A DNA stretch of 64,000 bases from a virus, in IMG/VR virus record IMGVR_UViG_3300035698_017294, positions 1-64,000 of that record. One strand, 5' to 3'. A program made the position numbers and the translations under genes. The notes beneath the pieces were generated by a model. That model did not search any database and was not told the origin of the DNA. It worked only from the letters and a program-made list of their open reading frames with translations. Below, piece after piece: positions 111 through 24,660 of the stretch. Every line of letters starts with the position of its first letter. Within the stretch, counting starts at the first letter, position 1.

Positions 111-455
111 ATGCTAACCAAATTAGGTTTCTCACCGGCCAAATCAATCAAGTTACTTGGCAGACCATTCGGGGTGCTGGGATCCAAGATTAACAACAAG
201 GTAAACCAGTACACCGCGAACAGGGCGATGCTTGGGTTTAACAAAGCTCGAAGCCTGCCTGTGGCACAACAAGCTAAGGGATATCATCTAGCGCGTAAAC
301 GCGCTAATAGGTATGCTCGTCTTTCACGTGCATTCAATAATGGCACTAGAACAGGCGTAGGCGTAGCCGCGGTAGGATTGGGCAGTGTAGGACTCGCTGG
401 AACAGCACTAGGTTTATTAAATAAAAAAAGTAAAAATAGGTATACATATGGGTAA
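111..455 (+). CDS. Small basic virion-type protein with LGF N-terminal tag
   Basis: The product is 114 residues, strongly basic, with a Gly/Ala-rich hydrophobic segment near the C terminus (about residues 82-105) that could span or insert into a membrane. The start at 111 is preferred over an in-frame ATG at 48, because the upstream frame ends at 94. It also gives the N terminus MLTKLGFSPAK, which resembles the tags on the genes at 448, 3169, 4001 and 24373. Its stop overlaps the next start by 8 bases. No family is recognised; an internal capsid protein is an inference from the tag. Confidence 0.65.
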   Translation: MLTKLGFSPAKSIKLLGRPFGVLGSKINNKVNQYTANRAMLGFNKARSLPVAQQAKGYHLARKRANRYARLSRAFNNGTRTGVGVAAVGLGSVGLAGTALGLLNKKSKNRYTYG

Positions 456-801
456 CAGACCAGGACTACAAAAACTTGGCTTCGTCAAGAAAGCCGGTCT
501 CAGCTTAGAAGACATCGAAGGCGATATTGGAACAACTCTAAGCGATAGACAGGAACCGACAGTACGTAGACTAATATCAGAGCAGTACCAGAAGCGTACG
601 GCATTGCGACATCCTGTAGCTACAGGTATACCGACTCTGGGAATAGCTCCGGCGATAGCAAAGCATAGAGCTAAGAAAGAAGTAAAGAACAAATTACTTA
701 ACATAGCGGCTAAGACTGGCCAGAAGAACCACACTATACTAAAGCGAGATTTTATAAGACTTGCAAGACAACACTATGATAAAAACCATGGTATAATGTA
801 A
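448..801 (+). CDS. Small basic protein with LGFxKKA N-terminal tag
   Basis: The product is 117 residues, Arg/Lys-rich and probably helical. The N terminus reads MGNRPGLQKLGFVKKAG and contains the shared LGF-x-K-x-A pattern. A mildly hydrophobic stretch (HPVATGIPTLGIAPAIAKH) lies in the middle. It overlaps the gene before it by 8 bases and shares one base with the next start (TAATG), so it is translated in a coupled run. No known family is recognised. Confidence 0.7.
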   Translation: MGNRPGLQKLGFVKKAGLSLEDIEGDIGTTLSDRQEPTVRRLISEQYQKRTALRHPVATGIPTLGIAPAIAKHRAKKEVKNKLLNIAAKTGQKNHTILKRDFIRLARQHYDKNHGIM

Positions 802-1370
802 TGCCTAAGAGGCTAAATACTGCACTATCATTAGCTGCGCTAGGCTTTGCGGGGCTCGGCACTGCCGACCTTATCAGATCTAGAGGTATGCGTGAACATA
901 CCAAGTATATCGATAATATAAATTCGACGAGCGACTCAACTAATTATCCAGTACCAAACAGAATTCATAGTACTAGCGTTCAGCGCCTTGCGGTTGATTC
1001 ATCGAACAAAGATGTGTATACTTTATTACACCGAGATGGAAATCAGGCATTTATCGTAGCACCGAACACGGCGCATCCAATAGCTATCGAACACGAACTC
1101 GGCCATGTAAAGGCCAAGTACCATGAGAAGCATCCTGGAATAGCTGCAAGGGCAGTTAGTATAGTGCACAAGCCGACGTTTAAAGCTACAAAGATACGCA
1201 ATGAAGAAGAAGCGTGGAGCTATGTCCATCCGTCCAGGGAAAAGCATGTATTGAAGCAACATGCGCTTGGGGCGTATGACAAAGAATTCCATAGAAAGCG
1301 AGGGCTTGCAGCAGTAGCTGCTGCAGTATTGGCAGCATCTCCACTGGTAGCTAGGAAATTTATCAAGTAA
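801..1370 (+). CDS. Membrane-anchored HExxH metallopeptidase-like protein
   Basis: The product is 189 residues. An N-terminal hydrophobic segment (about 8-25) and a C-terminal one (about 168-183) flank a soluble domain with HELGH at residues 98-102. This is the HExxH zinc-binding motif of zincin peptidases. A later Glu-rich stretch (NEEEAWSYVHP) could supply the third zinc ligand, as in M48-like enzymes. Zinc peptidase activity is inferred from the motif only. The gene sits among small membrane and virion proteins, so a role in entry or lysis is possible but not shown. Confidence 0.6.
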   Translation: MPKRLNTALSLAALGFAGLGTADLIRSRGMREHTKYIDNINSTSDSTNYPVPNRIHSTSVQRLAVDSSNKDVYTLLHRDGNQAFIVAPNTAHPIAIEHELGHVKAKYHEKHPGIAARAVSIVHKPTFKATKIRNEEEAWSYVHPSREKHVLKQHALGAYDKEFHRKRGLAAVAAAVLAASPLVARKFIK

Positions 1371-1392
1371 TAACCTCCGATAAGGGGACGCC

Positions 1393-1818
1393 ATGGGTGC
1401 TAATATAGATACACTGCTTGACAAGGTAGAGCAGGTTGTTGAAGTAATAGCCAATATTCTGCTGAAGCAACGTGAGCATAAGATCCAGATTGATGCTAAT
1501 AAGGATTTGCTCAATAACAACGAGAAGTTAGAAGAAAAGCGTAACGAGTCGTTAGAGAAGGATATAAAGCTAGTCGACACTAAAATTGAGGTGTATGACA
1601 AATCGGCTAAGTCCTCTAATAATCGCGTTTGGGCTATTCTTTTTTTAATTATTATTCCAATGTTTGCCGGCATGTGGGGATACATGTTCAACATGAAGGA
1701 TAAGATGCACGAGATGAACGTTAATCTGAAGGTGATGCAGGCAACACAACACAAACCAGCAACAACCACACCTGAATTTAAAATGCCGAAGGACTCACTA
1801 GATGCCGCCAACGATTAA
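1393..1818 (+). CDS. Coiled-coil single-span membrane protein
   Basis: The product is 141 residues. Residues 1-75 form a charged, heptad-like helix. A clear transmembrane segment follows at about 78-97 (WAILFLIIIPMFAGMWGYMF), then a short Met-rich juxtamembrane part and a Pro/Thr tail. This layout resembles spanin or holin-accessory proteins, but there is no lipobox and no specific family is recognised. A GGGG-type ribosome site precedes the ATG. The stop overlaps the next gene by 17 bases. Confidence 0.65.
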   Translation: MGANIDTLLDKVEQVVEVIANILLKQREHKIQIDANKDLLNNNEKLEEKRNESLEKDIKLVDTKIEVYDKSAKSSNNRVWAILFLIIIPMFAGMWGYMFNMKDKMHEMNVNLKVMQATQHKPATTTPEFKMPKDSLDAAND

Positions 1819-2832: not shown

Positions 2833-2836
2833 CAAC

Positions 2837-2910: not shown

Positions 2911-3165
2911 ATGGCACTGACATTTTGGGATCTGATGATGACAAAGGAGTCGTCATTACCACTAAACGCTGATTACTTAGATGACCCGGTAAAGGGAAAG
3001 CTAAAATATCCTAAGGCTGGCAAAGTAAAGAAGCCAAACATATTCAAACGTCATAAAGGCAAGCTACTAGGCACCGCGGCAGTATTAGGAGCGGCTGGTG
3101 CACTTAAGGGACTTAAATCGTACAGTGACAAGCAAAGACAAAAGCAACTCTCACGGAGATTCTAA
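2911..3165 (+). CDS. Small basic protein with one hydrophobic segment
   Basis: The product is 84 residues from the ATG at 2911, chosen because AAAGGA lies 6 bases upstream. The in-frame ATG at 2884 would sit too close to the predicted transcription start. Lys-rich throughout, with a Gly/Ala hydrophobic stretch (LLGTAAVLGAAGALKGL) near residues 53-70. It is the first gene behind the 2837 promoter. No family is recognised. Confidence 0.65.
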   Translation: MALTFWDLMMTKESSLPLNADYLDDPVKGKLKYPKAGKVKKPNIFKRHKGKLLGTAAVLGAAGALKGLKSYSDKQRQKQLSRRF

Positions 3166-3168
3166 CGC

Positions 3169-3510
3169 ATGCTGAAAACGCTAGGCTTCACCAAGAAAGC
3201 ATTCTTGGGAATGAAGACCCCGATGCTAGGCTATTCGCACAAGCACGTCAGTGACGAGCTAGGGCAGTTCAAGTTCCATAGGGATTACGAGTATGCCGCA
3301 CGAAGCGCAGGAGATTACGAAGGGATGCGAGGAGCAGTTGCTCGCAAAGCTGAAAGCAGCACCAAGATAAAAACTATGGTAGCCGCACGTAAGGCTCGCA
3401 AAAAAGCAATGCGTTCAACATTCAAGACACTTGCTCCTTGGACCGCAGGACTAGAAGCACCAATGGCGTTTAACGATATTAAGAAAACACTAAAGGCGTC
3501 CAGACTATGA
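3169..3510 (+). CDS. Small basic protein with LGFxKKA N-terminal tag
   Basis: The product is 113 residues, starting MLKTLGFTKKAFLG, the clearest example of the shared N-terminal tag. The rest is Ala/Arg/Lys-rich and probably helical, without a membrane segment. It starts 3 bases after the previous stop and ends in an ATGA overlap with the next gene. Function is unknown. Packaging inside the head is inferred from the tag and from the recurrence of the same K-x-A pattern in capsid proteins. Confidence 0.7.
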   Translation: MLKTLGFTKKAFLGMKTPMLGYSHKHVSDELGQFKFHRDYEYAARSAGDYEGMRGAVARKAESSTKIKTMVAARKARKKAMRSTFKTLAPWTAGLEAPMAFNDIKKTLKASRL

Positions 3511-4000: not shown

Positions 4001-4660
4001 ATGCTAAAGAAATTAGGATTCAAAAACAAAGCATGGGCTCTTGGAGGTGCAACAGTACTTCCAGCAGCCGTCTATGGTTACCAAAAGCTCCTTGGGACGA
4101 AGGGCATAGCAGAGGTCGACAAGCACTTAAAGCGCGATAAATCCATAGGTGGCGAAGTGTACGGGTATACCCCGGCGCACATAGCATCTAGGGCTTATGC
4201 TTTGAATCCTAAAGCTGCACTCGTTGCATCTGCGGGAGTAGGCGCAACCATGGCCAAAAAGATGGGCGACACACTAGATACAGTAGCACACGGCGAGCCA
4301 CGGGCAAGAGGGGTATCTAAGGCCGCGATACAAAAATTAACATTGAGCTACAAAGCACCAGCTTTAGCATTGGCAGCAGCTGGAGCCATGGCCGGGTTGG
4401 GGCTGGGCTTAACGAAGAAAGAAAACCCAAAGCATAAAGAAGTGGCTATGTTATCGGCTGCTACCGGACTAGGTTCCGCTGGAATAACTGCTGCCGGATT
4501 TAGCAAATCCAAATTATATGCTAAACATCCAAAGTTACGAGCTAATCACATTATAGCTACTGGGGCTATTGGGGCAGCATTACCCGCTATGGGTTATGGT
4601 TGGAACAAACTAGAGAAATGGCTAGCACCTAATGAGAAAAAAACTATTAATACCACATAA
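4001..4660 (+). CDS. Multi-span membrane protein with LGF N-terminal tag
   Basis: The product is 219 residues. It starts MLKKLGFKNKAW, a variant of the tag seen at 3169. Four Gly/Ala-rich hydrophobic segments follow (about 12-33, 125-146, 155-172 and 190-206), separated by basic loops, so it is a candidate integral membrane protein. No family is recognised. Its 3' end overlaps the next reading frame if that gene starts at 4632. Confidence 0.65.
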   Translation: MLKKLGFKNKAWALGGATVLPAAVYGYQKLLGTKGIAEVDKHLKRDKSIGGEVYGYTPAHIASRAYALNPKAALVASAGVGATMAKKMGDTLDTVAHGEPRARGVSKAAIQKLTLSYKAPALALAAAGAMAGLGLGLTKKENPKHKEVAMLSAATGLGSAGITAAGFSKSKLYAKHPKLRANHIIATGAIGAALPAMGYGWNKLEKWLAPNEKKTINTT

Positions 4661-6463: not shown

Positions 6464-9129
6464 TGAAAAAGAAAACGATCAAAATACGCAAATCGCAACT
6501 TGTAGAAGGAGCGTTCCATTTAAACGGCGCTCCTCTTTCGCTAAAGGACTACAAGCACATGCGCCCTATGTATGATATGGGTCGTAAGAAACTTGTGATG
6601 CAGTTTGGTCGACAGACTACCAAGTCGTCTACCATGGCTAATCTAATGTTAGCCAACAGTATGGTACATCCTGGATTTCACTCCATGTATGTAAGCCCAA
6701 CTGTAGATCAGACTAAGGTATTTTCTAATGACCGTCTTGGTCCTCTGATCATGAATTCGCCTTATGTAAAAAATAACTATCTAAGCAATAAGCTGGAACA
6801 GAATGTGTTCCGTAAAAAACTGCGCAACGAATCTACTATGTACTTACGTTACGCTCTTCTAAGTGCTGATAGGTTAAGAGGTTATTGCCTAACCAATTGT
6901 GATTATTATACTTATAGAGGATGGGTACCAGCAACAGATTTAAAAAAAGATGATCTGGTTTTAACTAAAAATGAAAAGACGGGAGAATTTGAGTTCCAAA
7001 AACCCACGGAAATAATAGAGCAGGACTATGATGGCCAGTTAGATATTTATACTGCCAAAGGTTTCCGCTGTGAGGTAACACCTGAACACAGAATGCACCT
7101 ATCTTTTGATGTAAGAGCTGATCATGCTTATGGTGATAAAACTTTACCCCTAGAATGGCAAACTGATTACAAATCTAAAGATTTATATAACCGCAATTTT
7201 AAATTAGGTTTAGGTGATATAAATCAGTGCTATTACAAAGGGAAGTCCCCGGAATTTTTTGAACTTCCTGAACTAAGAACTAATATAAGGGCAACCGGTA
7301 ATGCATATGTAGACGGCGGTATAAGGACTTACAAACCAATCAAACTTCCCATAAAACCGTTTATGCGGTGGATGGGGTGGTGGTTGTCCGAAGGATGGAC
7401 GGTATTGAATAATCCTACTATAGGTATTGCCCAATCTAAAGAGCACAACCCGAAGTATTGGAAAGAGATAGATGAATTATTTAACGAGCTGTTTCCGAAA
7501 CGCGCCAAGTATAATACTGGTATAGAAACATGGGTATTGAATAGTGAATATCGAACTCTTTACGAGTGGCTTAAACCTTTAGGTAAATCTGGCGATAAAT
7601 ATATACCCAGGGAGCTGCTTGAATATACTGAGTACTTACCAGACCTACTGGATGCACTTTACAAGGGAGATGGGGACAATTGCAGGACATATAAAAAGAG
7701 TGATAGATACAAAGATTACCTTAGATTAAATACCAAATCGAAAGAACTTGCAAATACAGTACAAGAGGCATGGTTGCGTATTGGTAAGTTGGCATCTATA
7801 AGACACCGAGATCGTAAATACGGTCGTATTTATACTGTAGAATTAAAATCTAAAAATTATTTTAATTTTTATTTAAACAGGGCATCTTGTTCTGGACAAG
7901 TAACACACGAGCATTATAAAGGTAAAATTTATTGTGTTACAGTTCCAAATCATAATTTTGTAGCTCGCCATTCAAAAGAAAAAATGCCGTTTGTAACTGG
8001 CAATTCCAACGACATGATCCTATACGACGAGGCACAGGATTTATTACAGGACATTGTTCCTGTTGCCAATCAGTCTATGTCGCATTCAATGTTCAAATGG
8101 CTAATGTTTGCGGGTACCCCAAAACGCACAATCGGTACTCTATCGTTTTACTGGAACCTATCCAGTAAGAATGAGTGGATGCCAAAATGTCCGGCATGTA
8201 ACAAGTATAATTATCTCGATGAAAAGAACATAGGCAAAGAAGGTTTGATATGTCGGTTCTGCGGACACATGCTAGACCCAAACAATGGCTTATGGGTAAG
8301 CACTGGTCCGAAGAATGCTGAGTACGAAGGCTTCCGTGTATCACAGCTACAGTTCTTTAATGCCCCGTGGGTTGACTGGAAAAATGATATTATCATACCT
8401 CACGAACAGTATGGTATCACAAAATTCTATAACGAGGTTCTAGGTATTGCGCACGATGAAGGCGTGGTACCAATTACAGAGGCAGAGATCCGAGCGTGCT
8501 GTACTGGCGGCCCCATGACGGATAAGCCAACCAGAGTTGACCAAGGCCACAAACATGTCATAGGGCTTGACTACGGTCCAGTGAACTCAAATAAGTCATA
8601 TACCCTTCTATCTGTGTTATGCAAAAAGCCTGGACCGGCCAAGGTGATACAGGTAAAGTATTTGAAGAAATATGAGGGTAAAGAAGCAGACTTCTCGTTT
8701 ATCCATGATGATGTGCCAGTGAAGTTTAATAGATGGAACGCGTACGTAATAGGCAGCGATTACGGGTTAGGTGAAGCTTCCAATTCTGAGCTGCGTGCCA
8801 AATTAGGGGAAGATAAGGTTATTGCATACCAGCACACTGGAACACAAAAAGACCGCGTGCGCTGGAACAAGCAGATGCGTGCTTATACATTATCCCGTAA
8901 TACAACACTTGGGCAGCTATTTGCTAGGATAAAGAAAAGGAAGATCATATTCCCACGATGGGAAGATTTTGAACCGTTTGCGCGTGACATTTTGGCCATC
9001 ATGATAGACTATGATGAAGAGAAGGGCACCATGTCATACATCAACAGTGAACCAGACGATGCTATGCATTCTATATTATACGGCGGCATGGCATTGGAAT
9101 TACTGGAGGGCATGACAGATGAATACTAG
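6463..9129 (+). CDS. terL: Terminase large subunit, interrupted by an intein
   Basis: The DNA-packaging motor. It has an N-terminal ATPase and a C-terminal RNase H-like nuclease that pump and cut concatemeric DNA at the portal. The 888-residue precursor has a Walker A-like GRQTTKSS at 49-56 and Walker B MILYDEA at 518-524. A Cys4 zinc knuckle (CPAC...CRFC) and nuclease acidic residues in IGLDYG, IGSDYG and EPDDAMH follow. Residues 142-514 are an intein; removing them joins SADRLRGY to SNDMILYDEA, the usual terminase order. The mature protein would be 515 residues. It shares one base with the gene before it. Confidence 0.95.
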   Translation: MKKKTIKIRKSQLVEGAFHLNGAPLSLKDYKHMRPMYDMGRKKLVMQFGRQTTKSSTMANLMLANSMVHPGFHSMYVSPTVDQTKVFSNDRLGPLIMNSPYVKNNYLSNKLEQNVFRKKLRNESTMYLRYALLSADRLRGYCLTNCDYYTYRGWVPATDLKKDDLVLTKNEKTGEFEFQKPTEIIEQDYDGQLDIYTAKGFRCEVTPEHRMHLSFDVRADHAYGDKTLPLEWQTDYKSKDLYNRNFKLGLGDINQCYYKGKSPEFFELPELRTNIRATGNAYVDGGIRTYKPIKLPIKPFMRWMGWWLSEGWTVLNNPTIGIAQSKEHNPKYWKEIDELFNELFPKRAKYNTGIETWVLNSEYRTLYEWLKPLGKSGDKYIPRELLEYTEYLPDLLDALYKGDGDNCRTYKKSDRYKDYLRLNTKSKELANTVQEAWLRIGKLASIRHRDRKYGRIYTVELKSKNYFNFYLNRASCSGQVTHEHYKGKIYCVTVPNHNFVARHSKEKMPFVTGNSNDMILYDEAQDLLQDIVPVANQSMSHSMFKWLMFAGTPKRTIGTLSFYWNLSSKNEWMPKCPACNKYNYLDEKNIGKEGLICRFCGHMLDPNNGLWVSTGPKNAEYEGFRVSQLQFFNAPWVDWKNDIIIPHEQYGITKFYNEVLGIAHDEGVVPITEAEIRACCTGGPMTDKPTRVDQGHKHVIGLDYGPVNSNKSYTLLSVLCKKPGPAKVIQVKYLKKYEGKEADFSFIHDDVPVKFNRWNAYVIGSDYGLGEASNSELRAKLGEDKVIAYQHTGTQKDRVRWNKQMRAYTLSRNTTLGQLFARIKKRKIIFPRWEDFEPFARDILAIMIDYDEEKGTMSYINSEPDDAMHSILYGGMALELLEGMTDEY
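6886..8004 (+). mobile_element. Intein in terminase, with LAGLIDADG homing endonuclease
   Basis: A self-splicing protein insert of 373 residues, from Cys142 to Asn514 of the terminase ORF. Block A begins CLTNCDYYTYRGW and block B is VTPEHRM (T-x-x-H). Two LAGLIDADG-type helices are MGWWLSEGW and LLDALYKGDGD, and block F is YCVTVPNHNF. The C-terminal junction is TGN followed by Ser, so the usual penultimate His is a Gly. It splits the ATPase just before Walker B. Confidence 0.93.
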
Positions 9130-9649
9130 AACGTTTTGGGAATACATGAGTAAGCACGGAGCACAAAAAGTTACTAACGGAAGATATTTTATTGCTATTC
9201 CAACCTCATACGGCGGACCTGAACATATGACGGTTAAGTTCCTAGGTGAACTTAGCGAGACACAAGTACAGAAGGCCAAGGATCGGATGGAGGCATTAGC
9301 TAATATAGAGAAAGTGCCACTAACGAGTAAAGGTGTTGGCCTACTAGGTCGCAAGTCACCCTACTTCGTTGATTTTGTAGATGATGAGGATCGTCGCATT
9401 CGTGACATATTTAAAACATTTAATAAGTCTAGCAAGAAAACGATACCACACGTAACTGCCTTTAAGATAAAGAAAACAGACACAACTTTTAATACCGGAG
9501 CAATTGACCCAATGAGTTCAGTGCTGGCCGATAAAGTTGTCTTATATAGAACTGCTGGCATGCATAAGTACGAGACCGTTTACGAAGTAGCCTTGAAGAA
9601 TAGGACTCCGTGGAATTGGGTCAAAGATAGATTTGCAAATTGGCTATAA
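9119..9649 (+). CDS. 2H phosphoesterase (LigT / 2'-5' RNA ligase fold), possible Acb1-like anti-CBASS
   Basis: The product is 176 residues. Two H-x-T motifs sit at His36-Thr38 (HMTVKF) and His111-Thr113 (HVTAF), spaced as in 2H phosphoesterases. These enzymes hydrolyse or ligate 2',3'-cyclic or 2'-5' phosphates. Phage members include Acb1, which destroys cyclic oligonucleotide signals of CBASS defence; whether this one does so cannot be read from the motif. It overlaps the terminase stop by 11 bases. An internal ATG at 9146 is an alternative start. Confidence 0.75.
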   Translation: MNTRTFWEYMSKHGAQKVTNGRYFIAIPTSYGGPEHMTVKFLGELSETQVQKAKDRMEALANIEKVPLTSKGVGLLGRKSPYFVDFVDDEDRRIRDIFKTFNKSSKKTIPHVTAFKIKKTDTTFNTGAIDPMSSVLADKVVLYRTAGMHKYETVYEVALKNRTPWNWVKDRFANWL

Positions 9650-9693: not shown

Positions 9694-10431
9694 ATGTTAA
9701 CACAAGAAGAATTCGCAGAATATGGACGGCAAGCTGCTCGGGCTCATATGGATAGTGATATACCATTGACGGATTCAGTAATTAAGATCGCTGAGGAATT
9801 CTCTCTCAATCGACATGAAATAGATCGGCTTGTTGAAGAAGCCAATACTAGCACATATATGGAAATGTTCAGTAAGCAGGCCGATAAATATATCGAGTTC
9901 GAAGTTGCTGAAGCTGCAAAGGTTGCTGAAGCGATTGCGCCAAAAATGGCATTCTCCAAAGTAGCTGCGTTTTGTGAAGACTATGAATCCCCTCCTGACC
10001 AGTACGATCTAGGTATTGAACTAACTGATGTATTTGGCAACGAAGAAGCAGGCCCAGACGAAGCTCTAGAAAAGGAAGCTTCCGCCATTGCATTAGAAAA
10101 GGTATCTATAGAAAAGCGAGCTGCTACAGAAGAGCAGATGCGCGAGCTGGCATATAATTTCGATGATAGGTCTGACCAATTCATCAACTTTGTAAAAAGT
10201 GCAGCGGCTGCAGGAGTGTCACCAGATTCTATGAAGGTGTCGATCGAAACACACACTGGCGAAAATGCCGTACTGGATTCCCTTTTTAATAAGGCTGCAG
10301 GAGGCATTAAGCACCCAGAGGATTGCTTGAAGAAGATCGCCAAATTAGATGATACGACTGGCATAGTATTACTAGCTAATGAGCTAATAAAGACTGCCGA
10401 AAAATATGTAACACTAAAAGGGCAGGTATAA
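9694..10431 (+). CDS. Prohead internal or scaffold-like protein rich in K-x-A motifs
   Basis: The product is 245 residues, acidic and helical. It carries about ten copies of a hydrophobic-x-Lys-x-Ala pattern, including VIKIAEE, FSKQAD, FSKVAAF, LEKEASA, FVKSAAA, LKKIAKL and LIKTAEK. An AAGGA ribosome site precedes the ATG. It ends by sharing a base with the next start and lies just before the prohead protease. A scaffold or core role is inferred from position and composition. The repeated motif is discussed in the findings. Confidence 0.65.
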   Translation: MLTQEEFAEYGRQAARAHMDSDIPLTDSVIKIAEEFSLNRHEIDRLVEEANTSTYMEMFSKQADKYIEFEVAEAAKVAEAIAPKMAFSKVAAFCEDYESPPDQYDLGIELTDVFGNEEAGPDEALEKEASAIALEKVSIEKRAATEEQMRELAYNFDDRSDQFINFVKSAAAAGVSPDSMKVSIETHTGENAVLDSLFNKAAGGIKHPEDCLKKIAKLDDTTGIVLLANELIKTAEKYVTLKGQV

Positions 10432-11105
10432 TGACTGAGCAATTTGTAAGACTATATAAGCAAGGTAAATTACCTGCTAGCACACTTATTAAAATGGCCG
10501 CTCTTAAAGAAGAGATAGAGAAGAAAGCCGGATGGAAAGGATTTGGCCAAATTGGCAAGTTCCTTGGGTACGGTAGTGCAAAAGCACGTGAAGGCTCAGC
10601 GGAATTGGGCCAACTCGGCCCTGTTAATTCGCTAGGCGGCGGCGCTAAGGCACTTGGTGGGCTAATGCTTATATCCGCATTAGCGGGAGGCCTAATGTCA
10701 GCTGGCCAAACTGGTATCGATAAACTAGATAAAAATCTATTCGATGAAAAAAGAATGACTGGCGCATTAGATGCTATGGTAGAGAAGTTCCCAGAGATGG
10801 GATCCAAAGAAAATAAGGAATTGGTGCACAGCTATTTCAAATCATTGTGGCATTTTAGTCCTCACATAGCTAACGATCCCATGGCGGCACGCGCGTATAT
10901 AAAGCATGCTCTAACGTTACATGAAGTAGGCGGACCTACTCACTTGACGTATAAGGATCTCATTGAAGCCCAGAAAAATAGAGGCCAGACAGAACAGGCA
11001 CTACCTGTTCGCAGCGCTATGAGTGGATCACTTAATGCACTTAAAGCATTTGGTGGACCTCCTGCAAATGATTACATGCTGAACCCAGCAATCGGTAAGC
11101 TTTAA
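10431..11105 (+). CDS. Head-module protein with Gly-rich hydrophobic centre
   Basis: The product is 224 residues. The N-terminal helix has LIKMAAL and IEKKAGW, the K-x-A pattern of its neighbours. A Gly/Ala hydrophobic stretch (ALGGLMLISALAGGLMS, about 72-90) follows, then a soluble helical domain with several His. It sits between the scaffold-like gene and the protease and overlaps the former by 1 base. No family is recognised. Confidence 0.6.
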   Translation: MTEQFVRLYKQGKLPASTLIKMAALKEEIEKKAGWKGFGQIGKFLGYGSAKAREGSAELGQLGPVNSLGGGAKALGGLMLISALAGGLMSAGQTGIDKLDKNLFDEKRMTGALDAMVEKFPEMGSKENKELVHSYFKSLWHFSPHIANDPMAARAYIKHALTLHEVGGPTHLTYKDLIEAQKNRGQTEQALPVRSAMSGSLNALKAFGGPPANDYMLNPAIGKL

Positions 11106-11109: not shown

Positions 11110-13923
11110 ATGCTAAAACTTGTAGAATATAAAGCCGAAGATGATTTTGGTGTGCAAATAGAACTTATCGAGCCAGGTGGGCCGATGGTTAAAACTGCAG
11201 AAGCATCAGACGAACTTCAAGAGGCTATAGCGCTGATAAAGCCAAACGCAGCAAAGCTGTACATCTTGGTAAATGCTATGGGCGCTGGTGAGTATTACGG
11301 GTCTAATCGAAATGGTGACTACTTCCCTGAAAAGGTATTACAGCAGTATCACAAAACGTTTGAGACCCTGGCACGAGTATATAAGCACCATGTTAATAAA
11401 GATCCAATGCGGTCTTACGGTCGACCTGTATTTAGTCACTACAACAATAAGATGCATCGCGTCGAGCTGATCTTAGAGATAGACAAGGGAAAAGATGCCA
11501 AGATCGAGCAGCAGGTACGTGAAGGAACGATAAAAGTATCAATGGGTGCAAAAGTTCCGTTTGATATATGTCTTGATGTTAATACTTTAGTCAACACAAC
11601 TATTTTAAAGAATATTGAACCGGGGGATTTTGTATTTACCCATGAAGGTAGATCTAAGGAAGTAGTTGCTACATCAACGCGTATTGTAGATTCCTATATA
11701 GAAGTTTTACCTTTTGGTGATTACTTATCTCTAAACTCTACCGAAGAACATCCATTTCAAATTGCTAACTACAAGCAATTCAAGGAAGGCAAAATAACAA
11801 GGCTGAAGGCTTTAAAAACTGATTACCCGATTTTAGACTGGAAAGAGGCCAAAGACTTAAATATTGGTGATTATCTAGTATTTAGAAAAACAGCTAAACA
11901 TGTGTCTACCCTAGGTATTAATTTTGCTAGAATTTTGGGTTACTACTTAGCGGAAGGTTGGCTAATAAAGCAAAGATCCGGTAAGAAAAAAGATGGCCCA
12001 ATGAAAACAATGGGAGTATCTTTTTCTTTTAATATAAATGAACATGACTATATTGATGAATTAGCAGACCTTCTTTCAGAATATGGAACACCAAAAATAT
12101 ATAATGCCCCAGAAAAGCATGAGTGCCGTATAAGTGTTTATTCAAAAGACTTAGTCGACAAGTTATTAAAATATGGTGGTGAGTACCCAGGTACTAAATT
12201 TATTAATTCAGAACTTTATAAAGAATCAGAAGATTTTATTCTGGAACTTTTAGGGACTTTAATAAATGGCGACGGTAGCCAAGATCATTCTTCACAGCAA
12301 GGGGTAATAAGATATAGCACTATATCCGAGTATCTGGGAAGAGGTATTCGTCGACTATGTCTTGAGGCTGGTATAACAGCTAGTATAAATAGACGCGAAA
12401 CGAAAACTACGTATGGCGATTCTACGGTATATACTGTATATATTCCAGCTAGCGCTAGTAAGATTCTTTCAAGCTATTCAGTAAAAGTTAAATCTTATGA
12501 TAAAGGAACTTCTTCTAGGCTATTTAATTTTGATAATCATGTATTAATTCCTATAAAGAAGATATGTAATCACGACGATTACCTTGAAGTTAAAAATATT
12601 CAGGTAGAGGATGACGAATCCTATCAAGCGCAAGATTATGTTTCACATAATTGCTCAATATGTGGACACAAGGCGCGTCGCATGGTAGACTATTGCGAGC
12701 ATCTTAAACGTCCGAATATCAATAGGCTTAGACCTGATGGTCGTCGTGCGTATGCGATTAACACGCAGCCAAAGTTCTTCGATATATCCGTGGTGACAAT
12801 ACCAGCAGATCGTACTGCTTTTATGATGAGAAAGCTAGCGGAGTTCGAAGGCAACAGTGAGTTCGTAAAGCTGTCATCTGAGATGTATCACGAGGTATTA
12901 AAGAAAGCTGATGTTAAGGAAGCGGAAATAGAGAAGCAGATAGACGGCGAGACTATGTCTACTGCGGATACAGATCCTAAGGGGCTTATATATAATACTC
13001 AGGACGAGTTACCAAAAGCTGATCTTATAAATCTGGTAGACAAGCACGGTGCAGAAGCAATACTACGTGCACTTGCCGAAATGAATATCATGCCAAAGCC
13101 TGTGGACTTCCAGAGAATAATGCTACGCTCAGGACACATGGACGATCTAATGGATCACATGGATAGTCATAGGCGAGTTTTCCCGATCTTCTCAGATACG
13201 GAACCATTGCCGTTCAAATGTAATCATAGTGAATTGCCAGATGAGCTGCTACATGAAATGTCGACATACGTTCCCAGACGGTCATTATCAAAACCATTGA
13301 TAATTGTCCGCGTAATGCGCAAGTTTGCAGAGAATAAAAACATCATGTCGGATGATCCATATACGCAGTATTCAAAAAACGAATTGGCGCAGATGGAGAA
13401 CGGCTCACATGTTAAGACTCCAATTTACAAGAATCCAGCTATACCTCTAACCGCCCTCGGCGGCATGTATCTTGGATACTCAAGGTATTTTAAAAAGGCT
13501 GGATCCAGATCTGCTGTGGCGAACAAGTTTATCAAGAAGCCGTGGATGTACCCGCTATTGGCTTTTGGTATAGGAGCAGGAACTGTTGGTGCGCAGAAGG
13601 TTAAAGAGTTCAGCTTATCAAATATTAGCCAAATGCAGAAACAAGCAGGCGCAGCTTCTAACATAGCGGCAGGAATGCTAGTATCTTTACCAGCTACGTA
13701 TTACACTTCATATAACGTAGGTGCGAAGAAGAGATATGGTATACCAGTCGGAAACATAGAAAATACAGTAGCTAAGCATCCATTTATTACTGGGCTAGCG
13801 TCCAGCGTGGCTGCTGGAGCGGCTATTAAAAGACTAACAAAAGTTGCTTCGGCAGAATATTTTTCTACAATGTCAAACAAGGTTATAGACGAATTGTATG
13901 AAAAACTTGTACTTAGCACTTGA
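11110..13923 (+). CDS. Prohead protease-type protein with intein and long C-terminal extension
   Basis: The precursor is 937 residues. Residues 1-153 and 515-600 together resemble the head maturation protease of large myoviruses: AMGAGEYYGSNRNGDYFP, a conserved KVSMGAKVPFDI, a CSICGHKAR...YCEHL zinc-type motif and FFDISVVTIPADRTAF. Such enzymes cut scaffold and capsid proteins in the prohead. Residues 154-514 are an intein. Residues after about 600 form a long extension with K-x-A motifs and three hydrophobic Gly/Ala stretches near the end, unusual for a protease and perhaps an internal protein cleaved off. The stop overlaps the 13920 promoter. Confidence 0.8.
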   Translation: MLKLVEYKAEDDFGVQIELIEPGGPMVKTAEASDELQEAIALIKPNAAKLYILVNAMGAGEYYGSNRNGDYFPEKVLQQYHKTFETLARVYKHHVNKDPMRSYGRPVFSHYNNKMHRVELILEIDKGKDAKIEQQVREGTIKVSMGAKVPFDICLDVNTLVNTTILKNIEPGDFVFTHEGRSKEVVATSTRIVDSYIEVLPFGDYLSLNSTEEHPFQIANYKQFKEGKITRLKALKTDYPILDWKEAKDLNIGDYLVFRKTAKHVSTLGINFARILGYYLAEGWLIKQRSGKKKDGPMKTMGVSFSFNINEHDYIDELADLLSEYGTPKIYNAPEKHECRISVYSKDLVDKLLKYGGEYPGTKFINSELYKESEDFILELLGTLINGDGSQDHSSQQGVIRYSTISEYLGRGIRRLCLEAGITASINRRETKTTYGDSTVYTVYIPASASKILSSYSVKVKSYDKGTSSRLFNFDNHVLIPIKKICNHDDYLEVKNIQVEDDESYQAQDYVSHNCSICGHKARRMVDYCEHLKRPNINRLRPDGRRAYAINTQPKFFDISVVTIPADRTAFMMRKLAEFEGNSEFVKLSSEMYHEVLKKADVKEAEIEKQIDGETMSTADTDPKGLIYNTQDELPKADLINLVDKHGAEAILRALAEMNIMPKPVDFQRIMLRSGHMDDLMDHMDSHRRVFPIFSDTEPLPFKCNHSELPDELLHEMSTYVPRRSLSKPLIIVRVMRKFAENKNIMSDDPYTQYSKNELAQMENGSHVKTPIYKNPAIPLTALGGMYLGYSRYFKKAGSRSAVANKFIKKPWMYPLLAFGIGAGTVGAQKVKEFSLSNISQMQKQAGAASNIAAGMLVSLPATYYTSYNVGAKKRYGIPVGNIENTVAKHPFITGLASSVAAGAAIKRLTKVASAEYFSTMSNKVIDELYEKLVLST
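11569..12651 (+). mobile_element. Intein in prohead protease, with LAGLIDADG homing endonuclease
   Basis: A protein insert of 361 residues, Cys154 to Asn514 of the protease ORF. Block A is CLDVNTLVNTTILKNIEPGD and block B is STEEHPFQ. The two endonuclease helices are ILGYYLAEGW and LLGTLINGDGS. The C-terminal end is the standard VSHN followed by Cys. Splicing joins VPFDI to CSICGHK, restoring the zinc-type motif. It lacks close similarity by eye to the terminase intein outside the common blocks. Confidence 0.93.
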
Positions 13924-13996: not shown

Positions 13997-14551
13997 ATGG
14001 CTTTAAATTTACAAGAAGTGATTGACAACCTAGAGAGTCAGACTGATCCAGCGGACAACTTTTTCGCAAAATTGGCATCAGATGAAAATCAAGAAGTTGT
14101 TGATGAGGTAACTTCGGACATTGAAGCTTCTGAATATACAGATGAAGAGCAAGAAAAAATCGCCGAAGCTTTTGAGCTAGGGCAATTAGCTGCACAATCT
14201 GTATCCGATGATCTAGAAAAAATAGCTGTTGGTAAAACTGGTATGACACCAGAAACTGGTGCTCCAATGAACCCAGCAATAGCTATGGCAACTAATAATG
14301 CCGATGTTAATCCTCAAGTCTTGGCGCAAGTTATGGCTTTGATTAACCAAGCAGCTAGCGGAATTGGCCAAACTGGCTCACTTGCACACGGCTCAGTCGG
14401 TGGACAAGGTGCAGCGGCGGCTCAAGCTCCCGCAGTTACAGACGCGTATCCCATTGCATCAGATGCAATCGGAACTCCAGGTAGAGTTAAAACCGCGGCT
14501 GATTACGTAGTTGGTGGATTGTACGGGCTCTATTTCGGGGGTGAGGAATAA
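13997..14551 (+). CDS. Acidic assembly (scaffold-like) protein
   Basis: The product is 184 residues. The N-terminal half is acidic and helical with FFAKLASD, QEKIAEA and LEKIAVG; the C-terminal half is Ala/Gly/Gln-rich and ends LYFGGEE. RVKTAAD lies near the end. It starts behind an ideal ribosome site (AGGAGG) and is first in the capsid operon. Order and composition fit a scaffold or core protein processed by the upstream protease; no family is recognised with certainty. Confidence 0.65.
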   Translation: MALNLQEVIDNLESQTDPADNFFAKLASDENQEVVDEVTSDIEASEYTDEEQEKIAEAFELGQLAAQSVSDDLEKIAVGKTGMTPETGAPMNPAIAMATNNADVNPQVLAQVMALINQAASGIGQTGSLAHGSVGGQGAAAAQAPAVTDAYPIASDAIGTPGRVKTAADYVVGGLYGLYFGGEE

Positions 14552-14841
14552 TGGCTGGATTACTTGAAATGTATGAACAAATGACAAAAGAAGCAGAAGA
14601 GACACAAGTCGATGTGCAGCTGGACGAAGAGCGTGTAGGTGTGATCGAGAAGTATGCTTCCTTTGCCGAAGATGTGTTGATTGATAATGGCGAAGATTAT
14701 ACAGAAGATGATGTCATCAAACTGGCTAGTGCGTTGATCGATCATGATCTCGAAGTAGAAGACCAGATGGACAAGGTAGCCGAGCTAGACGAAGCTGGCC
14801 GCATCATGGCACGTGCTTTTCTTGCAGAACTGCAAAACTAA
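14551..14841 (+). CDS. Small acidic assembly protein with K-x-A motifs
   Basis: The product is 96 residues, Glu/Asp-rich and probably all helix. It contains four copies of the shared pattern: MTKEAEE, IEKYASF, VIKLASA and MDKVAEL. The start overlaps the previous stop by one base. It appears related in composition to the proteins at 13997 and 14854, and the three may be divergent paralogues. It probably has a head-assembly role by position. Confidence 0.65.
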   Translation: MAGLLEMYEQMTKEAEETQVDVQLDEERVGVIEKYASFAEDVLIDNGEDYTEDDVIKLASALIDHDLEVEDQMDKVAELDEAGRIMARAFLAELQN

Positions 14842-14853: not shown

Positions 14854-15229
14854 AATGGCAAGTTTACTAGAAATATTAGCTGAATCTAACATAACGTTAG
14901 GTGACGACGAGAGCCAAGTTAAACTGGCTAGCGGTGAGCTGGATACTTCTGTGAACTTAGATAAGGACTCGATCGAAAAGCTGGCTGAAACGCTGGATGC
15001 TTTTGGCGAAGAGGATTCATTACTTGATGAGATGGCAAAAATTGCTGTGTTGCAAGACATGATCAACTTGGTTGAAGCTTCAGACGAACACAAAGCTATT
15101 TTGAAAGAAGCTGGACTGGCTTTACCGCCTTATGCCGAAACTGAACCAGATCGAAATCGTTTTGAATATTTGGCTGAGCGAATTGCTAATGGCGAACGGT
15201 TACTACCCGGAGGCACAGCAAATGACTAA
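14854..15229 (+). CDS. Small acidic assembly protein with K-x-A motifs
   Basis: The product is 124 residues from the ATG at 14854, chosen because CTGGAG lies 6 bases upstream. An earlier in-frame ATG at 14813 lies inside the previous gene and adds an atypical basic leader. Motifs are QVKLASG, IEKLAET, MAKIAVL and ILKEAGL. The N terminus MASLLEILAES resembles MAGLLEMYEQM of the preceding protein, supporting paralogy. Confidence 0.65.
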
Positions 15230-15551
15230 ACACGAATTATGCAAACAAGCGGCAGCGACGATAAGGGCTCAATTCGAACGTATTGAACAACTAGAGAACG
15301 AAAGATTAGTGCTTGACAAAGCTATCGATCTTACCTCTGATTTAGTAGAACACGAAAAGATTTCGTCAGTCAAAGCTTTTGATAAACTAGCTGAATTACG
15401 TGGCCAAACTTTAGAGCAGCTGGTTACGCTGGACAAGGCAATCGAGCTTACTAAGGAGTCAGGCTTTAATCTAGAATTAGGTAGATTATCTGACGAGCAC
15501 AGCAGTGCTAATGGTGACCCTCTAACCAGTTGGTTACTAGACGACAATTAA
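15222..15551 (+). CDS. Small helical assembly protein
   Basis: The product is 109 residues from the ATG at 15222, which has GGAGG 9 bases upstream and overlaps the previous stop. Highly charged coiled-coil sequence with an internal repeat: LVLDKAIDLTSD and LVTLDKAIELTKE. K-x-A copies are LCKQAAA and FDKLAEL. It is the last of four small assembly proteins before the decoration and capsid genes. Confidence 0.65.
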   Translation: MTKHELCKQAAATIRAQFERIEQLENERLVLDKAIDLTSDLVEHEKISSVKAFDKLAELRGQTLEQLVTLDKAIELTKESGFNLELGRLSDEHSSANGDPLTSWLLDDN

Positions 15552-16062: not shown

Positions 16063-16989
16063 ATGTCTTATGATGTTGATCCTAAAGCCCTGACAGAACT
16101 CTTCATTGAGAAGATGGGCACAGACATGGAGAAGACAGCAGCTGAGGCTGGTGCCTTCGTGCGTATGAGATTGCGCGAGCTTTCCTTCATGCGTAAAATC
16201 ATGAACCCTACGTACGTTACTGCGGCTGACTGCCAGCGTTCCGTGCTACATGACCAATTGGTCAAAATCGTTGATAAGGAGCCTGATTCAACTGCGTACA
16301 CTATGAACTTCCGTGGCAAAGCTAACGCTACCTACGTGAAGGGTGAACGCTATGAAATTTCTTTCTTCTTAGTGGGATCGGAAGATTTCCAGAAGACTGA
16401 GGAAGAGCTCCTAGCATACGAGATGCCTATTACAGATGTTATTGAAAAGAACTCTGTTAAAGACATTCAAAAAGTTGAAGATACTGTATTTATCCAAACC
16501 ATTTCTGGAATATGTGATGACAATTCTAAGAGTAGAAGCCTGGCAACAGGAATCTCTGGAATTACCAATCCTATTCCTCAGCTGGTTTTCCGTACCGGAT
16601 TCAATTTACTTGAATCCGTAAGTGGAAATGACCCATTGTATACTGACTTGATTCTTATGAACCAAGCTGATTACAATAAACTTATTGAGTGGAATAGTAC
16701 TCAGATCGGTGATCAAATCGCGACTGAGATTACTACTAATGGTTTCACTTACCCAACTCTGTTCGGTAAGAAAGTTATCACCACAATTAAGGGTGCATTG
16801 GTTCCTGAGAATACACTGTATTTCTTTGCACCAAAAGAGTACTTGGGTCACGCCTACATTCTAGGTGATACAAAGTTCTGGATCGAAAAGAGAAAGAATC
16901 TTGTGACTTGGGGTGCTTACGAGCATATCGGTGTAGGTATCGGTAACAACAACGGTGTTGCTAGAGTTACATACAGCGTTTTATCATAA
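16063..16989 (+). CDS. Major capsid protein, HK97 fold
   Basis: The product is 308 residues, the building block of the head shell. The N-terminal helical arm includes MEKTAAEAG at about 22-30, matching the K-x-A pattern and a plausible maturation cleavage site. The body has the capsid order: an E-loop-like region, a long spine region, then LYTDLILMNQADYNKL, YPTLFGKKVITT, NTLYFFAPKEYLG and a C-terminal strand. An AGGAGGT ribosome site precedes it and a terminator follows, as expected for the most abundant protein. Length is typical. Confidence 0.85.
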   Translation: MSYDVDPKALTELFIEKMGTDMEKTAAEAGAFVRMRLRELSFMRKIMNPTYVTAADCQRSVLHDQLVKIVDKEPDSTAYTMNFRGKANATYVKGERYEISFFLVGSEDFQKTEEELLAYEMPITDVIEKNSVKDIQKVEDTVFIQTISGICDDNSKSRSLATGISGITNPIPQLVFRTGFNLLESVSGNDPLYTDLILMNQADYNKLIEWNSTQIGDQIATEITTNGFTYPTLFGKKVITTIKGALVPENTLYFFAPKEYLGHAYILGDTKFWIEKRKNLVTWGAYEHIGVGIGNNNGVARVTYSVLS

Positions 16990-22014: not shown

Positions 22015-22299
22015 TTGAGCAAAACATATGTAGGAGATGTCGGCACTATAATAATTGTCGATATAGGCGAGAGTGTCTCTGCGGCAACCTATACAGCGCT
22101 AAAGGTGCGTAAGCCGGGCGCTGATACAGAGTATATATGGTCCGGCGAAGTATACAATACAAACTACGTTAAGTACACTACCGTAGATGGGGATTTCAGT
22201 ATAGCTGGCCAGTATCACGTTCAGCCGCATATCATAACATCGACCTGGGATGGTCTGGGTGAAACAATCACACTAACTGTATTTGATCCATTCGAGTAA
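22015..22299 (+). CDS. Small beta-rich structural protein (BppU N-domain-like)
   Basis: The product is 94 residues with a TTG start behind GAAGGAGA. The order (VGDVGTIIIVDIG, TALKVRKPGADTEYIWSG, GQYHVQPHIIT, ITLTVFDPFE) resembles the N-terminal domain of baseplate upper proteins that attach fibres to the tail. Position among fibre-like genes agrees. The similarity is by eye. Confidence 0.5.
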   Translation: MSKTYVGDVGTIIIVDIGESVSAATYTALKVRKPGADTEYIWSGEVYNTNYVKYTTVDGDFSIAGQYHVQPHIITSTWDGLGETITLTVFDPFE

Positions 22300-22308
22300 A
22301 GGTAACAC

Positions 22309-23013
22309 ATGAGTCTATTTGATCCAATTAAACCATATCTTTGTCCGGATATTTTCAACAAACAGAATAAGCTTCGGCCGTATGTACGGCTGGTCATAAC
22401 GACCGGCGTTGAACTGCTTGTACCGAAGGAACATGTTGGAGGCATCTATATACGCGGATCTGTTATCGATTACAAGTGGAGCTACACATCCGATGTGGAT
22501 GTTAATATTCTACTGAAGCCCGAGCACGCAGATAGGCGGGCAGAGTTCCACTCAATGGTAAAAGGATCCAATGGTAAGACGTTCATCAAGAAGCATCCTA
22601 TAAACTACTTTATAGATATTATGCCAGATGAATGGAACATGCTACATCTGCGCAGGCTGTACGACGTTACAAATAATAAATGGGTTGCTACTCCAGACAG
22701 AACAAAAGCTATTACACGTAAGAAGGCACTAGAGCTAGCATCGCCAGTGGCTCCAATAGCGGCAACAAATGCTGAGCTGCAAATTGAGCAATTGGCTAAA
22801 GCCATTAGATCTGGAGACATGGACCGTATACTACACGAGGCAAAAGACGTAACACAATTCTATAAAATACTTGACCGCAAGCGAAAACGTGGCTATGCTC
22901 TAGGAGCGGGAACCTACTCTCACCAGAATGCGCTATACAAGTATGTAGAACATGAGGGTAAGTACCCAGACACGCTTGGAAAGATATACGAACTACTTAG
23001 AGATAGAGTGTAA
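22309..23013 (+). CDS. Nucleotidyltransferase-fold protein
   Basis: The product is 234 residues. GSVIDYKWSYTSDVDVNILL carries the G-S...D-x-D signature of the polymerase-beta-like nucleotidyltransferase superfamily. NYFIDIMP would provide the third carboxylate. This family transfers NMP groups to proteins, RNA, antibiotics or second messengers; the substrate here is unknown. The helical C terminus contains LDRKRKRGYALGAG. It shares one base with the helicase gene. Its presence inside the tail region is unusual. Confidence 0.65.
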   Translation: MSLFDPIKPYLCPDIFNKQNKLRPYVRLVITTGVELLVPKEHVGGIYIRGSVIDYKWSYTSDVDVNILLKPEHADRRAEFHSMVKGSNGKTFIKKHPINYFIDIMPDEWNMLHLRRLYDVTNNKWVATPDRTKAITRKKALELASPVAPIAATNAELQIEQLAKAIRSGDMDRILHEAKDVTQFYKILDRKRKRGYALGAGTYSHQNALYKYVEHEGKYPDTLGKIYELLRDRV

Positions 23014-24395
23014 TGTCAGCAGACGCAGTAATAGAACGATATAAAAGATCGCCTGCCGGATTACTAGTGGTACGCCCAACCGGCAGCGGAAAAACTAGGC
23101 TTGCATTAAAGGCGACCAGAGAAGACAAACGTAACACGGTTGTTGGCACTGCTTCCCTAACCAAGAACTTTGAGGGCGAAGAGAAAAAGGTCTTTAAGGC
23201 TACTACGCCGAGAAAGGTTACAACTTACTCTAGTGTAGCACGAGGCAATGAGCTACCAGGCGGTAATAATCTGATTCTAGACGAGTCACATTATATCCGT
23301 AACCCAAAAACGCGAACTGCAAAGATGCTAACCCAGGAGCGTAAAAAGTACAACAAGGCCCTACTACTTACAGCGACTCCTATAGTAAATGAGCCGTATG
23401 ACTTAGCAAGCCAGGTAAACTTGGTTGCTAATCGCGAAGTAATGCCGGCGGATAAGAAAGAATTCTATAGCAAGTATTACGATTCCAAGAATGTCAAACC
23501 GGGCTTCTTTGGGAGAATGCTAGGGGTTAAGCCAGGTGCCGTAAGGGAACTTAAAAAAAGAACTGATCTAGAAGACACTGTATCACAATTTGTTGACATT
23601 GCAGATAAAAAAGAAGTTGCCGAATTCATGCCAAAGACTAAGCATGAGGTAGTCAACGTTCCTATGGCCGAGGACCAATCAAAGATCTATAAGTATCTGG
23701 AGGGTAAAATGCCCTTCCATGTGCGATACAAAATAAAGAAAGGCCTGCCACCATCTAAGTCTGAGAGCGCGAATCTAAACGCATACATGACTGGTCTACG
23801 CCAAGTATCTAACACAACAGCACCTTACGTAAAAGAAGGTGTACAGCCGGTTAGCTCTAAGCTAGACCAAATGGTTAAAGACATGCGGGCCGAGTTGGCA
23901 AATAAGGGTAAAGTGATAACCTACTCCAATTTCCTAGGTGCCGGCTCAACTCGTATCAAGGCTCGACTAGACAAGAAGAATATACAGTACAGCGAAATAC
24001 ACGGGTCGTTGACTAAGAAGCAGCGTGCGGCCGAGGTAGAGAAATATACCTCTAACAAGTCCAACGTCATGTTGTTTAGCGGCGCTGGTTCTGAGGGATT
24101 GAACCTGCCTAAGACTACAATGGTCCAGATCACAGAACCGCATTGGAATGAGGCACGCGTCTATCAGGCGGCATCGCGAGGAGTTCGTCGAGGAGATGAT
24201 CCTAATCGTACAGTCAACATTAGACATTATTTATCGACTCGGCCGGAATCAAAATTAAACAGACTGGGCTTTGGTAAGCCGAAAAAGTCGGCTGATCAAT
24301 ATCTATATGAAATGAGTAAGCGCAAAAAAGAAGAATCTGATTCCATGCTGCGCGCGCTACGGGGAAAAAGTGATGCTAAGAGAACTAGGGTTTGA
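23013..24395 (+). CDS. SNF2-type superfamily 2 helicase/translocase
   Basis: The product is 460 residues. Walker A PTGSGKT is at 22-28, motif II LDESH at 89-93, and motif III LLLTATPIVNEPYDL follows. The second RecA domain has KVITYSNF, EIHGSLT, VMLFSGAGSEGLNLP (motif V) and QAASRGVRRGD (motif VI). DESH and the early motif order place it near SNF2 or phage UvsW-type ATPases that remodel DNA-protein or branched DNA. It is compact, with no extra domains. It overlaps the next gene by 23 bases. Confidence 0.8.
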   Translation: MSADAVIERYKRSPAGLLVVRPTGSGKTRLALKATREDKRNTVVGTASLTKNFEGEEKKVFKATTPRKVTTYSSVARGNELPGGNNLILDESHYIRNPKTRTAKMLTQERKKYNKALLLTATPIVNEPYDLASQVNLVANREVMPADKKEFYSKYYDSKNVKPGFFGRMLGVKPGAVRELKKRTDLEDTVSQFVDIADKKEVAEFMPKTKHEVVNVPMAEDQSKIYKYLEGKMPFHVRYKIKKGLPPSKSESANLNAYMTGLRQVSNTTAPYVKEGVQPVSSKLDQMVKDMRAELANKGKVITYSNFLGAGSTRIKARLDKKNIQYSEIHGSLTKKQRAAEVEKYTSNKSNVMLFSGAGSEGLNLPKTTMVQITEPHWNEARVYQAASRGVRRGDDPNRTVNIRHYLSTRPESKLNRLGFGKPKKSADQYLYEMSKRKKEESDSMLRALRGKSDAKRTRV

Positions 24396-24660
24396 GAAGA
24401 CTGCCAAGAAGAAAAGCGAATTCAAGGTATTGCAGGAGAACAAAGTCCCGCTGACTCCAGAAGAGCGGGCTAAGGTAATGGGCAGTAAGGCAGTTTGGCA
24501 TTTTAACGGGGGTTCCCCTAGTCCGGCTGTATGGAAGTCGGTTAACAAGCAAACTGGTAAAACGACTTTTGTGACACATACGCACAGAGCATATAACACA
24601 GCTCCTACAGTGCAGGGTGGCATAGGTCGCTTTCACAAGTTTATCAAAGGCACAGCATAA
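24373..24660 (+). CDS. Small basic protein with LGFxKxA N-terminal tag
   Basis: The product is 95 residues from the ATG at 24373 (MLRELGFEKTAKKK). This start reproduces the tag of the genes at 448, 3169 and 4001 although the gene is 20 kb away. The rest is basic with His/Thr-rich stretches (KTTFVTHTHRAYNT). It overlaps the helicase gene and shares a base with the ligase start. Function is unknown. Confidence 0.65.
   Translation: MLRELGFEKTAKKKSEFKVLQENKVPLTPEERAKVMGSKAVWHFNGGSPSPAVWKSVNKQTGKTTFVTHTHRAYNTAPTVQGGIGRFHKFIKGTA

What the first reader, a model, noticed from the sequence alone, without database searches (positions are those of the whole stretch)
111..24660. Shared N-terminal tag LGF-x-K-x-A on unrelated small proteins
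Five otherwise dissimilar proteins open with a hydrophobic leader of the same kind: MLTKLGFSPAK (111), QKLGFVKKA (448), MLKTLGFTKKA (3169), MLKKLGFKNKA (4001) and MLRELGFEKTA (24373). The last lies 20 kb away from the others, so a simple paralogue cluster is not the explanation. Seen: the tag. Known: T4 internal proteins carry a short N-terminal capsid-targeting sequence cut by the prohead protease. Inferred: this is an analogous capsid-targeting or sorting signal of a different sequence type. If correct it defines a set of head-packaged proteins, several of them membrane-like, that could enter the host cell with the DNA.
Basis: partly seen in the sequence, partly recalled or inferred. Interest (0 to 1): 0.82.

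Follow-up and report, generated by a model that had tools for sequence, protein, structure and literature searches.

The report
Cleavable capsid-cargo tags in large phages
Many unrelated small proteins of this large phage and its relatives start with the same short tag, which ends in what looks like the cutting site of the phage's own capsid-assembly protease, so the tag probably loads them into the virus head and is then clipped off.

Summary
The tag is real. LGF is not the core. The core, hydrophobic-x-K-x-A, is the commonest motif of the head-assembly cluster: 31 copies against 4.3 expected in the window's head proteins, none in excess in tail or replication genes, and no other spacing enriched. 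It recurs in the head clusters of relatives down to 30% identity, at one place in the major capsid protein (K and A in 51 of 52 distinct sequences) and near the start of the protease. The protease core is predicted to have the T4 gp21/herpesvirus assemblin fold. Relatives use other tags (MKYFEKxA, MDKAxxVFxKYA, TYWELMxKxA), all ending in the same site; 86 tagged proteins fall into 64 unrelated groups, and orthologous cargo can carry different tags. Best reading: exchangeable capsid-targeting propeptides, like T4's, cut by a protease with inferred K-x-A specificity instead of x-x-E. Cleavage is strongly inferred, head targeting likely, entry into the host possible. Nothing has been shown in virions. 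Novelty: new variant of a known kind.

The parts
111..143 (+). Tag-like N-terminus MLTKLGFSPAK, if ATG 111 is the start (ORF 48-455); no K-x-A site
   Evidence: sequence
448..801 (+). Tagged cargo candidate, 117 aa; tag QKLGFVKKA with site FVKKA (residues 12-16)
   Evidence: ortholog L104:15899 keeps the tag (MLKELGFEKTA), the G006 homolog has an internal IHKAA before the same domain
2911..3165 (+). Candidate with second tag type MALTFWDLMMTKESS (site degenerate, K-E-S)
3169..3510 (+). Tagged cargo candidate, 113 aa; MLKTLGFTKKA, site FTKKA
   Evidence: the G001 homolog has lost the site (LGFLGM)
4001..4660 (+). Tagged cargo candidate, 219 aa, Ala/Gly-rich; MLKKLGFKNKA (variant F-x-x-K-A)
   Evidence: ortholog L007:191 MLKKLGFSSKA
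9119..9649 (+). LigT-like 2H phosphoesterase with second tag type MNTRTFWEYMSKHGA; ortholog in L007 MSTRTYWELMTKRA
   Evidence: PF02834 24.8 bits against cut-off 23.3
9694..10431 (+). Scaffold- or core-like protein with 11 hydrophobic-x-K-x-A sites (1.2 expected)
   Evidence: homologs in relatives equally rich
10431..11105 (+). Head-cluster protein with 3 sites
11110..13923 (+). Capsid-assembly protease, interrupted by an intein (about 11572-12651); N-terminal site MVKTA at residues 26-30
   Evidence: fold of the intein-free ortholog: T4 gp21 Z 10.0, then assemblins
13997..14551 (+). Head-cluster protein, sites FAKLA and LEKIA
14551..14841 (+). Head-cluster protein, sites such as MTKEA and IEKYA
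   Evidence: homolog L007:8494
14855..15229 (+). Head-cluster protein, sites such as IEKLA and MAKIA
   Evidence: homolog L007:8814
15132..15551 (+). Head-cluster protein, sites LCKQA and FDKLA
16063..16989 (+). Major capsid protein; conserved site MEKTA at residues 22-26 (16126-16140)
   Evidence: K and A in 51 of 52 distinct relatives; phrog_2522 major head protein
23013..24395 (+). SNF2-type helicase, untagged here; orthologs carry tag C or tag D
24370..24660 (+). Tagged cargo candidate, 96 aa; MLRELGFEKTA, site FEKTA; the G017 homolog has a different tag (AQVFEKYA)

Best explanation
The tag is a short N-terminal propeptide for loading proteins into the phage head. Its front part (MLKxLGF here; MKYF, MDKAxxVF or TYWELM in relatives) docks the protein onto the prohead core. 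[quoted passage not shown] Cleavage frees the cargo inside the maturing head, from where it may enter the host with the DNA. Shown: the motif, its confinement to head genes, its fixed place in capsid protein and protease, its presence on many unrelated proteins, and different tags on orthologous cargo. Strongly inferred: K-x-A is the protease site. Inferred: targeting. Possible: ejection into the host.
For: Window head proteins 31 sites against 4.3 expected (maximum of 500 shuffles 12); tail 1 against 2.8; minus strand 38 against 34; eight other spacings and residue pairs not enriched. In 153 non-redundant head proteins of relatives K-x-A is the most enriched residue pair of all (900 against 331, z 31), with consensus [LMFI]-E-K-[TVQ]-A-[ESA], and Gly, Pro and Asp nearly absent between K and A. 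Capsid protein site at the boundary between variable N-terminus and conserved arm in 52 distinct sequences. Protease N-terminus: K29 and A31 at least 90% conserved in 32 sequences. Protease core fold = T4 gp21 Z 10.0, then herpesvirus assemblins; residues 1-31 disordered in the model. Tag families A-D end in the same site; 86 tagged proteins, 64 unrelated groups. Orthologous cargo with different tags; helicase untagged, tag C or tag D. 15 of 32 records found by tag DNA patterns alone hold this protease. Isolates Arash and D69 show the same motif pattern.
Against: No mass spectrometry or N-terminal sequencing of any member. Tags at 111 and 4001 lack the exact motif, and the G001 homolog of 3169 lost it. 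N-terminal enrichment in this phage's own genome is modest (8 against 3.7). Shuffles treat related sequences as independent, and the head cluster was delimited after the first count. Distant relatives differ: phage G's capsid protein has no K-x-A, although its protease has 7 hydrophobic-x-K-x-A sites against 1.0 expected.
Confidence: 0.82

Rival explanations
1. K-x-A is an uncut docking motif: head proteins and cargo share a short helix that binds the core or shell, and no proteolysis happens there.
For: The site sits in likely helices; some tags (4001, 111, 2911) keep the lead-in but not the exact site.
Against: The site lies near the protease's own N-terminus and at the boundary to the capsid protein's conserved arm; many copies in scaffold-like proteins fit multi-site digestion; the lead-in differs between lineages while K-x-A stays; Gly, Pro and Asp are excluded between K and A, as at a protease site.
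Confidence: 0.1
2. The tag is only a by-product of 5'-end recombination or gene duplication within the cargo region and has no function of its own.
For: Tags are lineage-specific and their genes are clustered, so copying of 5' ends is a likely way for them to spread.
Against: Tags are kept with different synonymous codons; different tags on orthologs keep the same K-x-A boundary; the same site is in capsid protein and protease.
Confidence: 0.03
3. The tags are generic membrane or export leaders, or chance Lys/Ala-rich helices.
For: LGF is hydrophobic and several cargo proteins are Ala/Gly-rich; two tagged relatives match mitochondrial carrier repeats.
Against: The tag is 11 residues long, without a hydrophobic run of signal-peptide length. 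Composition-preserving shuffles give 0.0045 tags and 4.3 sites. Soluble enzymes (SNF2 helicases, LigT-like) carry tags.
Confidence: 0.03

Closest known systems
T4 capsid targeting sequence (CTS) of internal proteins IPI-IPIII and Alt, cut by gp21 (PMC9026906)
   Same: Short N-terminal propeptide shared by otherwise unlike proteins; about 10 residues suffice in T4 IPIII; targeting and cleavage residues lie in different parts; protease of the same predicted fold; the same site in scaffold and capsid proteins.
   Different: T4 cuts after L/I-x-E; here the conserved site is hydrophobic-x-K-x-A. Here several lineage-specific tag families sit on dozens of unrelated proteins.
SPN3US and phiKZ prohead proteases (gp245, gp175) and their ejection proteins (PMC10052503, PMC5694885)
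   Same: Large heads; scaffold and inner head proteins with many sites; cargo such as an RNA polymerase is expected to enter the host.
   Different: They cut after A-x-E or S-x-E, mostly with propeptides of 100 residues or more.
Phage P1 Dar system (DarB capsid localisation signal; PMC9024508)
   Same: An N-terminal signal packages an anti-restriction protein and can carry a foreign protein.
   Different: A single large protein; the P1 capsid protein is cut between E120 and S121.
Herpesvirus assemblin proteases
   Same: Same predicted fold (Z up to 9.5). From general knowledge, assemblins cut after Ala (Ala-Ser bonds), as inferred here.
   Different: Assemblins process their scaffold; no cargo-tag system is known to me. 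Their residues before the Ala differ from K-x-A.

Membership tests
T4-type capsid targeting sequence (CTS) | Short N-terminal propeptide shared by otherwise dissimilar proteins of one phage | tested here: met
   86 tagged proteins in 64 unrelated groups; 11 tag C copies in G003, 8 tag D starts in G017
T4-type capsid targeting sequence (CTS) | Tag ends in the same site as scaffold, protease and capsid protein | tested here: met
T4-type capsid targeting sequence (CTS) | Cleavage motif L/I-x-E | tested here: not met
   [LI]-x-E 34 against 26.5 expected (maximum of shuffles 38), A-x-E 15 against 18.3, S-x-E 12 against 9.6, while hydrophobic-x-K-x-A 31 against 4.3
T4-type capsid targeting sequence (CTS) | Tagged proteins are inside the virion with the tag removed | not testable with these tools
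   needs mass spectrometry of virions
T4-type capsid targeting sequence (CTS) | The tag is sufficient to package a foreign protein | not testable with these tools
   needs a fusion experiment
gp21/assemblin-fold capsid proteases | Fold of the protease core | tested here: met
   AF2 model of L007 ortholog, residues 46-217: 5jbl (T4 gp21) Z 10.0, 128 residues, 3.0 A; then VZV 9.5 and pseudorabies virus 9.3. Foldseek alone gave no confident hit
gp21/assemblin-fold capsid proteases | Invariant Ser and His in the core | tested here: met
   H95 and S145 (S-M) invariant in 32 sequences; their superposition on the gp21 catalytic residues was not examined
gp21/assemblin-fold capsid proteases | Proteolytic activity | not testable with these tools
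   needs a biochemical assay
Pfam Peptidase_S78 (HK97-type prohead protease) | Match to the PF04586 profile | tested here: inconclusive
   3 of 32 members match at E up to 0.1, best 0.00036; the member modelled does not

The most novel reading that the evidence does not exclude
A widespread lineage of large tailed phages runs an open cargo-loading code: any gene can join the virion proteome by gaining a roughly 11-residue, lineage-specific tag that ends in a K-x-A protease site. Dozens of enzymes and membrane-like proteins (SNF2 helicases, LigT-like phosphoesterases, mitochondrial-carrier-like proteins), some fused as polyproteins, are thereby packaged, released by the protease and delivered into the host.
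Probability: 0.5. Interest if true: 0.85.

Novelty: new variant of a known kind. Interest (0 to 1): 0.73.

Why it matters
If right, the virion cargo of a whole group of uncultured large phages can be read from sequence: find the protease, then every protein that starts with the lineage's tag. It would name dozens of candidate early-acting host-takeover or anti-defence proteins that have no annotation, show how T4-like cargo loading evolves (fixed cut site, changing docking part), add an apparent Ala-ending specificity to phage prohead proteases of the gp21 type, whose studied members cut after Glu, and offer a new short tag for loading proteins into phage capsids.

Tried and rejected
LGF as the defining element: LGF alone is common (51 occurrences in six frames of G000, 38 of them without an ATG close upstream). 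Paralogy of the tagged proteins: 64 unrelated groups. Composition bias: shuffles and spacing controls negative. T4-, SPN3US- and phiKZ-type sites in the same proteins: not enriched. Solved relatives as proof of cleavage: only phage G capsid 6wkk was found, too distant and without K-x-A; Myrna and Alice capsid proteins have no hydrophobic-x-K-x-A site near the N-terminus and the words protease and cleavage do not occur in the Myrna capsid paper. Pfam, PHROGs, NCBIfam and PADLOC gave no function for the five named cargo proteins. Foldseek alone did not recognise the protease. Literature: no paper naming a KXA site in phage heads in the held library, which lacks most subscription journals.

Full report
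WHAT WAS CHECKED. The window is the first 64 kb of a 106,197-base virus record. The genes make it a tailed phage: intein-bearing TerL at 6463, capsid-assembly protease at 11110, major capsid protein at 16063, tail and sheath genes to about 29.5 kb, replication and sugar genes on the minus strand. The five N-termini exist. Exact LGF-x-K-x-A occurs three times in six frames of the record, always at an ORF start (475, 3181, 24385), against 0.0045 expected in shuffled N-termini. The tags at 111 (LGFSPAK) and 4001 (LGFKNKA) only resemble it. Synonymous codons differ between copies.

WHERE THE MOTIF LEADS. A gene-by-gene count of hydrophobic-x-K-x-A showed it packed into the head-assembly genes: gene 9694 has 11 copies against 1.2 expected. 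With hand-curated genes and the intein removed, the eight head proteins hold 31 against 4.3 expected (maximum of 500 shuffles 12), eleven tail-region proteins 1 against 2.8, and 79 minus-strand proteins 38 against 34.1. KA, KxxA, KxxxA, AxK, RxA, ExA, KxS and KxG are not enriched in the head proteins. The head cluster was delimited after this was seen, so relatives are the real test.

RELATIVES. A capsid-protein search returned 76 loci, 28-79% identical. Every head cluster inspected, including those at 30% identity, is filled with the motif. In 153 non-redundant head proteins K-x-A is the most enriched residue pair of all (900 against 331); the consensus is [LMFI]-E-K-[TVQ]-A-[ESA]. In 52 distinct capsid proteins the K and A are each present in 51 (the exception has EKTA shifted by the alignment) and sit between a variable N-terminus and the conserved arm. 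The protease has the site near residue 27 in most of 32 sequences. The isolated phages Arash (Salmonella) and D69 (Vibrio) show the same.

THE PROTEASE. An AF2 model of the L007 ortholog is confident for most of residues 32-215 and disordered for 1-31, the part before and including the site. The second-look aligner places T4 gp21 first (Z 10.0), then herpesvirus assemblins; Foldseek alone did not find them. H95 and S145 are invariant. Weaker sequence matches link it to hypothetical proteins of Mycobacterium cluster C phages and to Bacillus phage G gp19.

THE TAGS. Each lineage has its own lead-in joined to the same site: A MLKxLGFxKxA (this phage, G001, G008, G013), B TYWELMxKxA (G001; degenerate in the window at 2911 and 9119), C MKYFEKxA (G003; 11 copies, all at initiation codons counting GTG and TTG), D MDKAxxVFxKYA (G017, G006; eight starts in about 10 kb of G017, plus three internal copies in one 679-residue frame that looks like a polyprotein). 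In all, 86 tagged proteins fall into 64 unrelated groups once 22 residues are removed (a few are probably chance hits). Orthologous cargo changes tag: window 24370 has MLRELGFEKTA, its G017 homolog has AQVFEKYA at the same boundary (64% identity beyond); the domain of window 448 follows MLKELGFEKTA in G001 and an internal IHKAA in G006. The SNF2 helicase is untagged here and in G001, has tag C in G003 and L147, and tag D in G017. Searching 2.9 million viral contigs for the tag DNA patterns alone led to 32 records tested, of which 15 hold this protease.

MECHANISM. Shown by sequence: a motif shared by tags, scaffold-like proteins, protease and capsid protein. Strongly inferred: it is the protease's cleavage site, probably after the Ala. 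Inferred from the T4 precedent (first 10 residues of IPIII suffice; PMC9026906): the lead-in docks cargo on the prohead core. Possible: ejection with the DNA. T4, SPN3US and phiKZ proteases cut after Glu, and their motifs are not enriched here. So this works like a T4 capsid targeting sequence but fails the test of the same cleavage specificity.

LIMITS. No proteomics. Some tags are degenerate and one homolog lost the site. Shuffle tests ignore relatedness. Records may be fragments. The paper library is partial.

Noticed in passing
L027:3417-4955, L027:6541-8262 and L118 (record G017; the same protease with one TGA also in G020, G021, G065): This relative reads TGA as Trp: TerL is open only under code 4, and its three TGA codons align with Trp in nearly all relatives compared.
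   Followed up: partly
L153:546-887 and L114:17287-17595: Two tagged proteins match the mitochondrial carrier family PF00153 (E 1.2e-14 and 1.9e-11), unexpected in phages.
   Followed up: partly
L118:8380-10419: One 679-residue frame (code 4) holds three internal tag-D-like sites, as if several cargo proteins were made as one polyprotein.
   Followed up: partly
window 9119-9649: A LigT-like 2H phosphoesterase with a tag-like N-terminus; possibly a packaged RNA-processing or anti-defence enzyme.
   Followed up: partly
window 6463-9129, 11110-13923; L005:8224-12144: TerL, the capsid protease and a ribonucleotide-reductase-like protein each appear to carry an intein.
   Followed up: no
window 31008-33363 (-): The DNA polymerase I gene appears split, with an HNH-endonuclease-like segment at the break.
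   Followed up: no
L165:11881-16416, L166:11839-15474, L167:11719-12621: Mycobacterium cluster C phage proteins listed as hypothetical or tape measure, and Bacillus phage G gp19, match this protease family; they may be unannotated capsid proteases.
   Followed up: partly
window 43431-57623 (-): A long run of sugar and glycan genes (NeuB-like synthase, aminotransferases, glycosyltransferases, a radical SAM protein) by their sequences.
   Followed up: no
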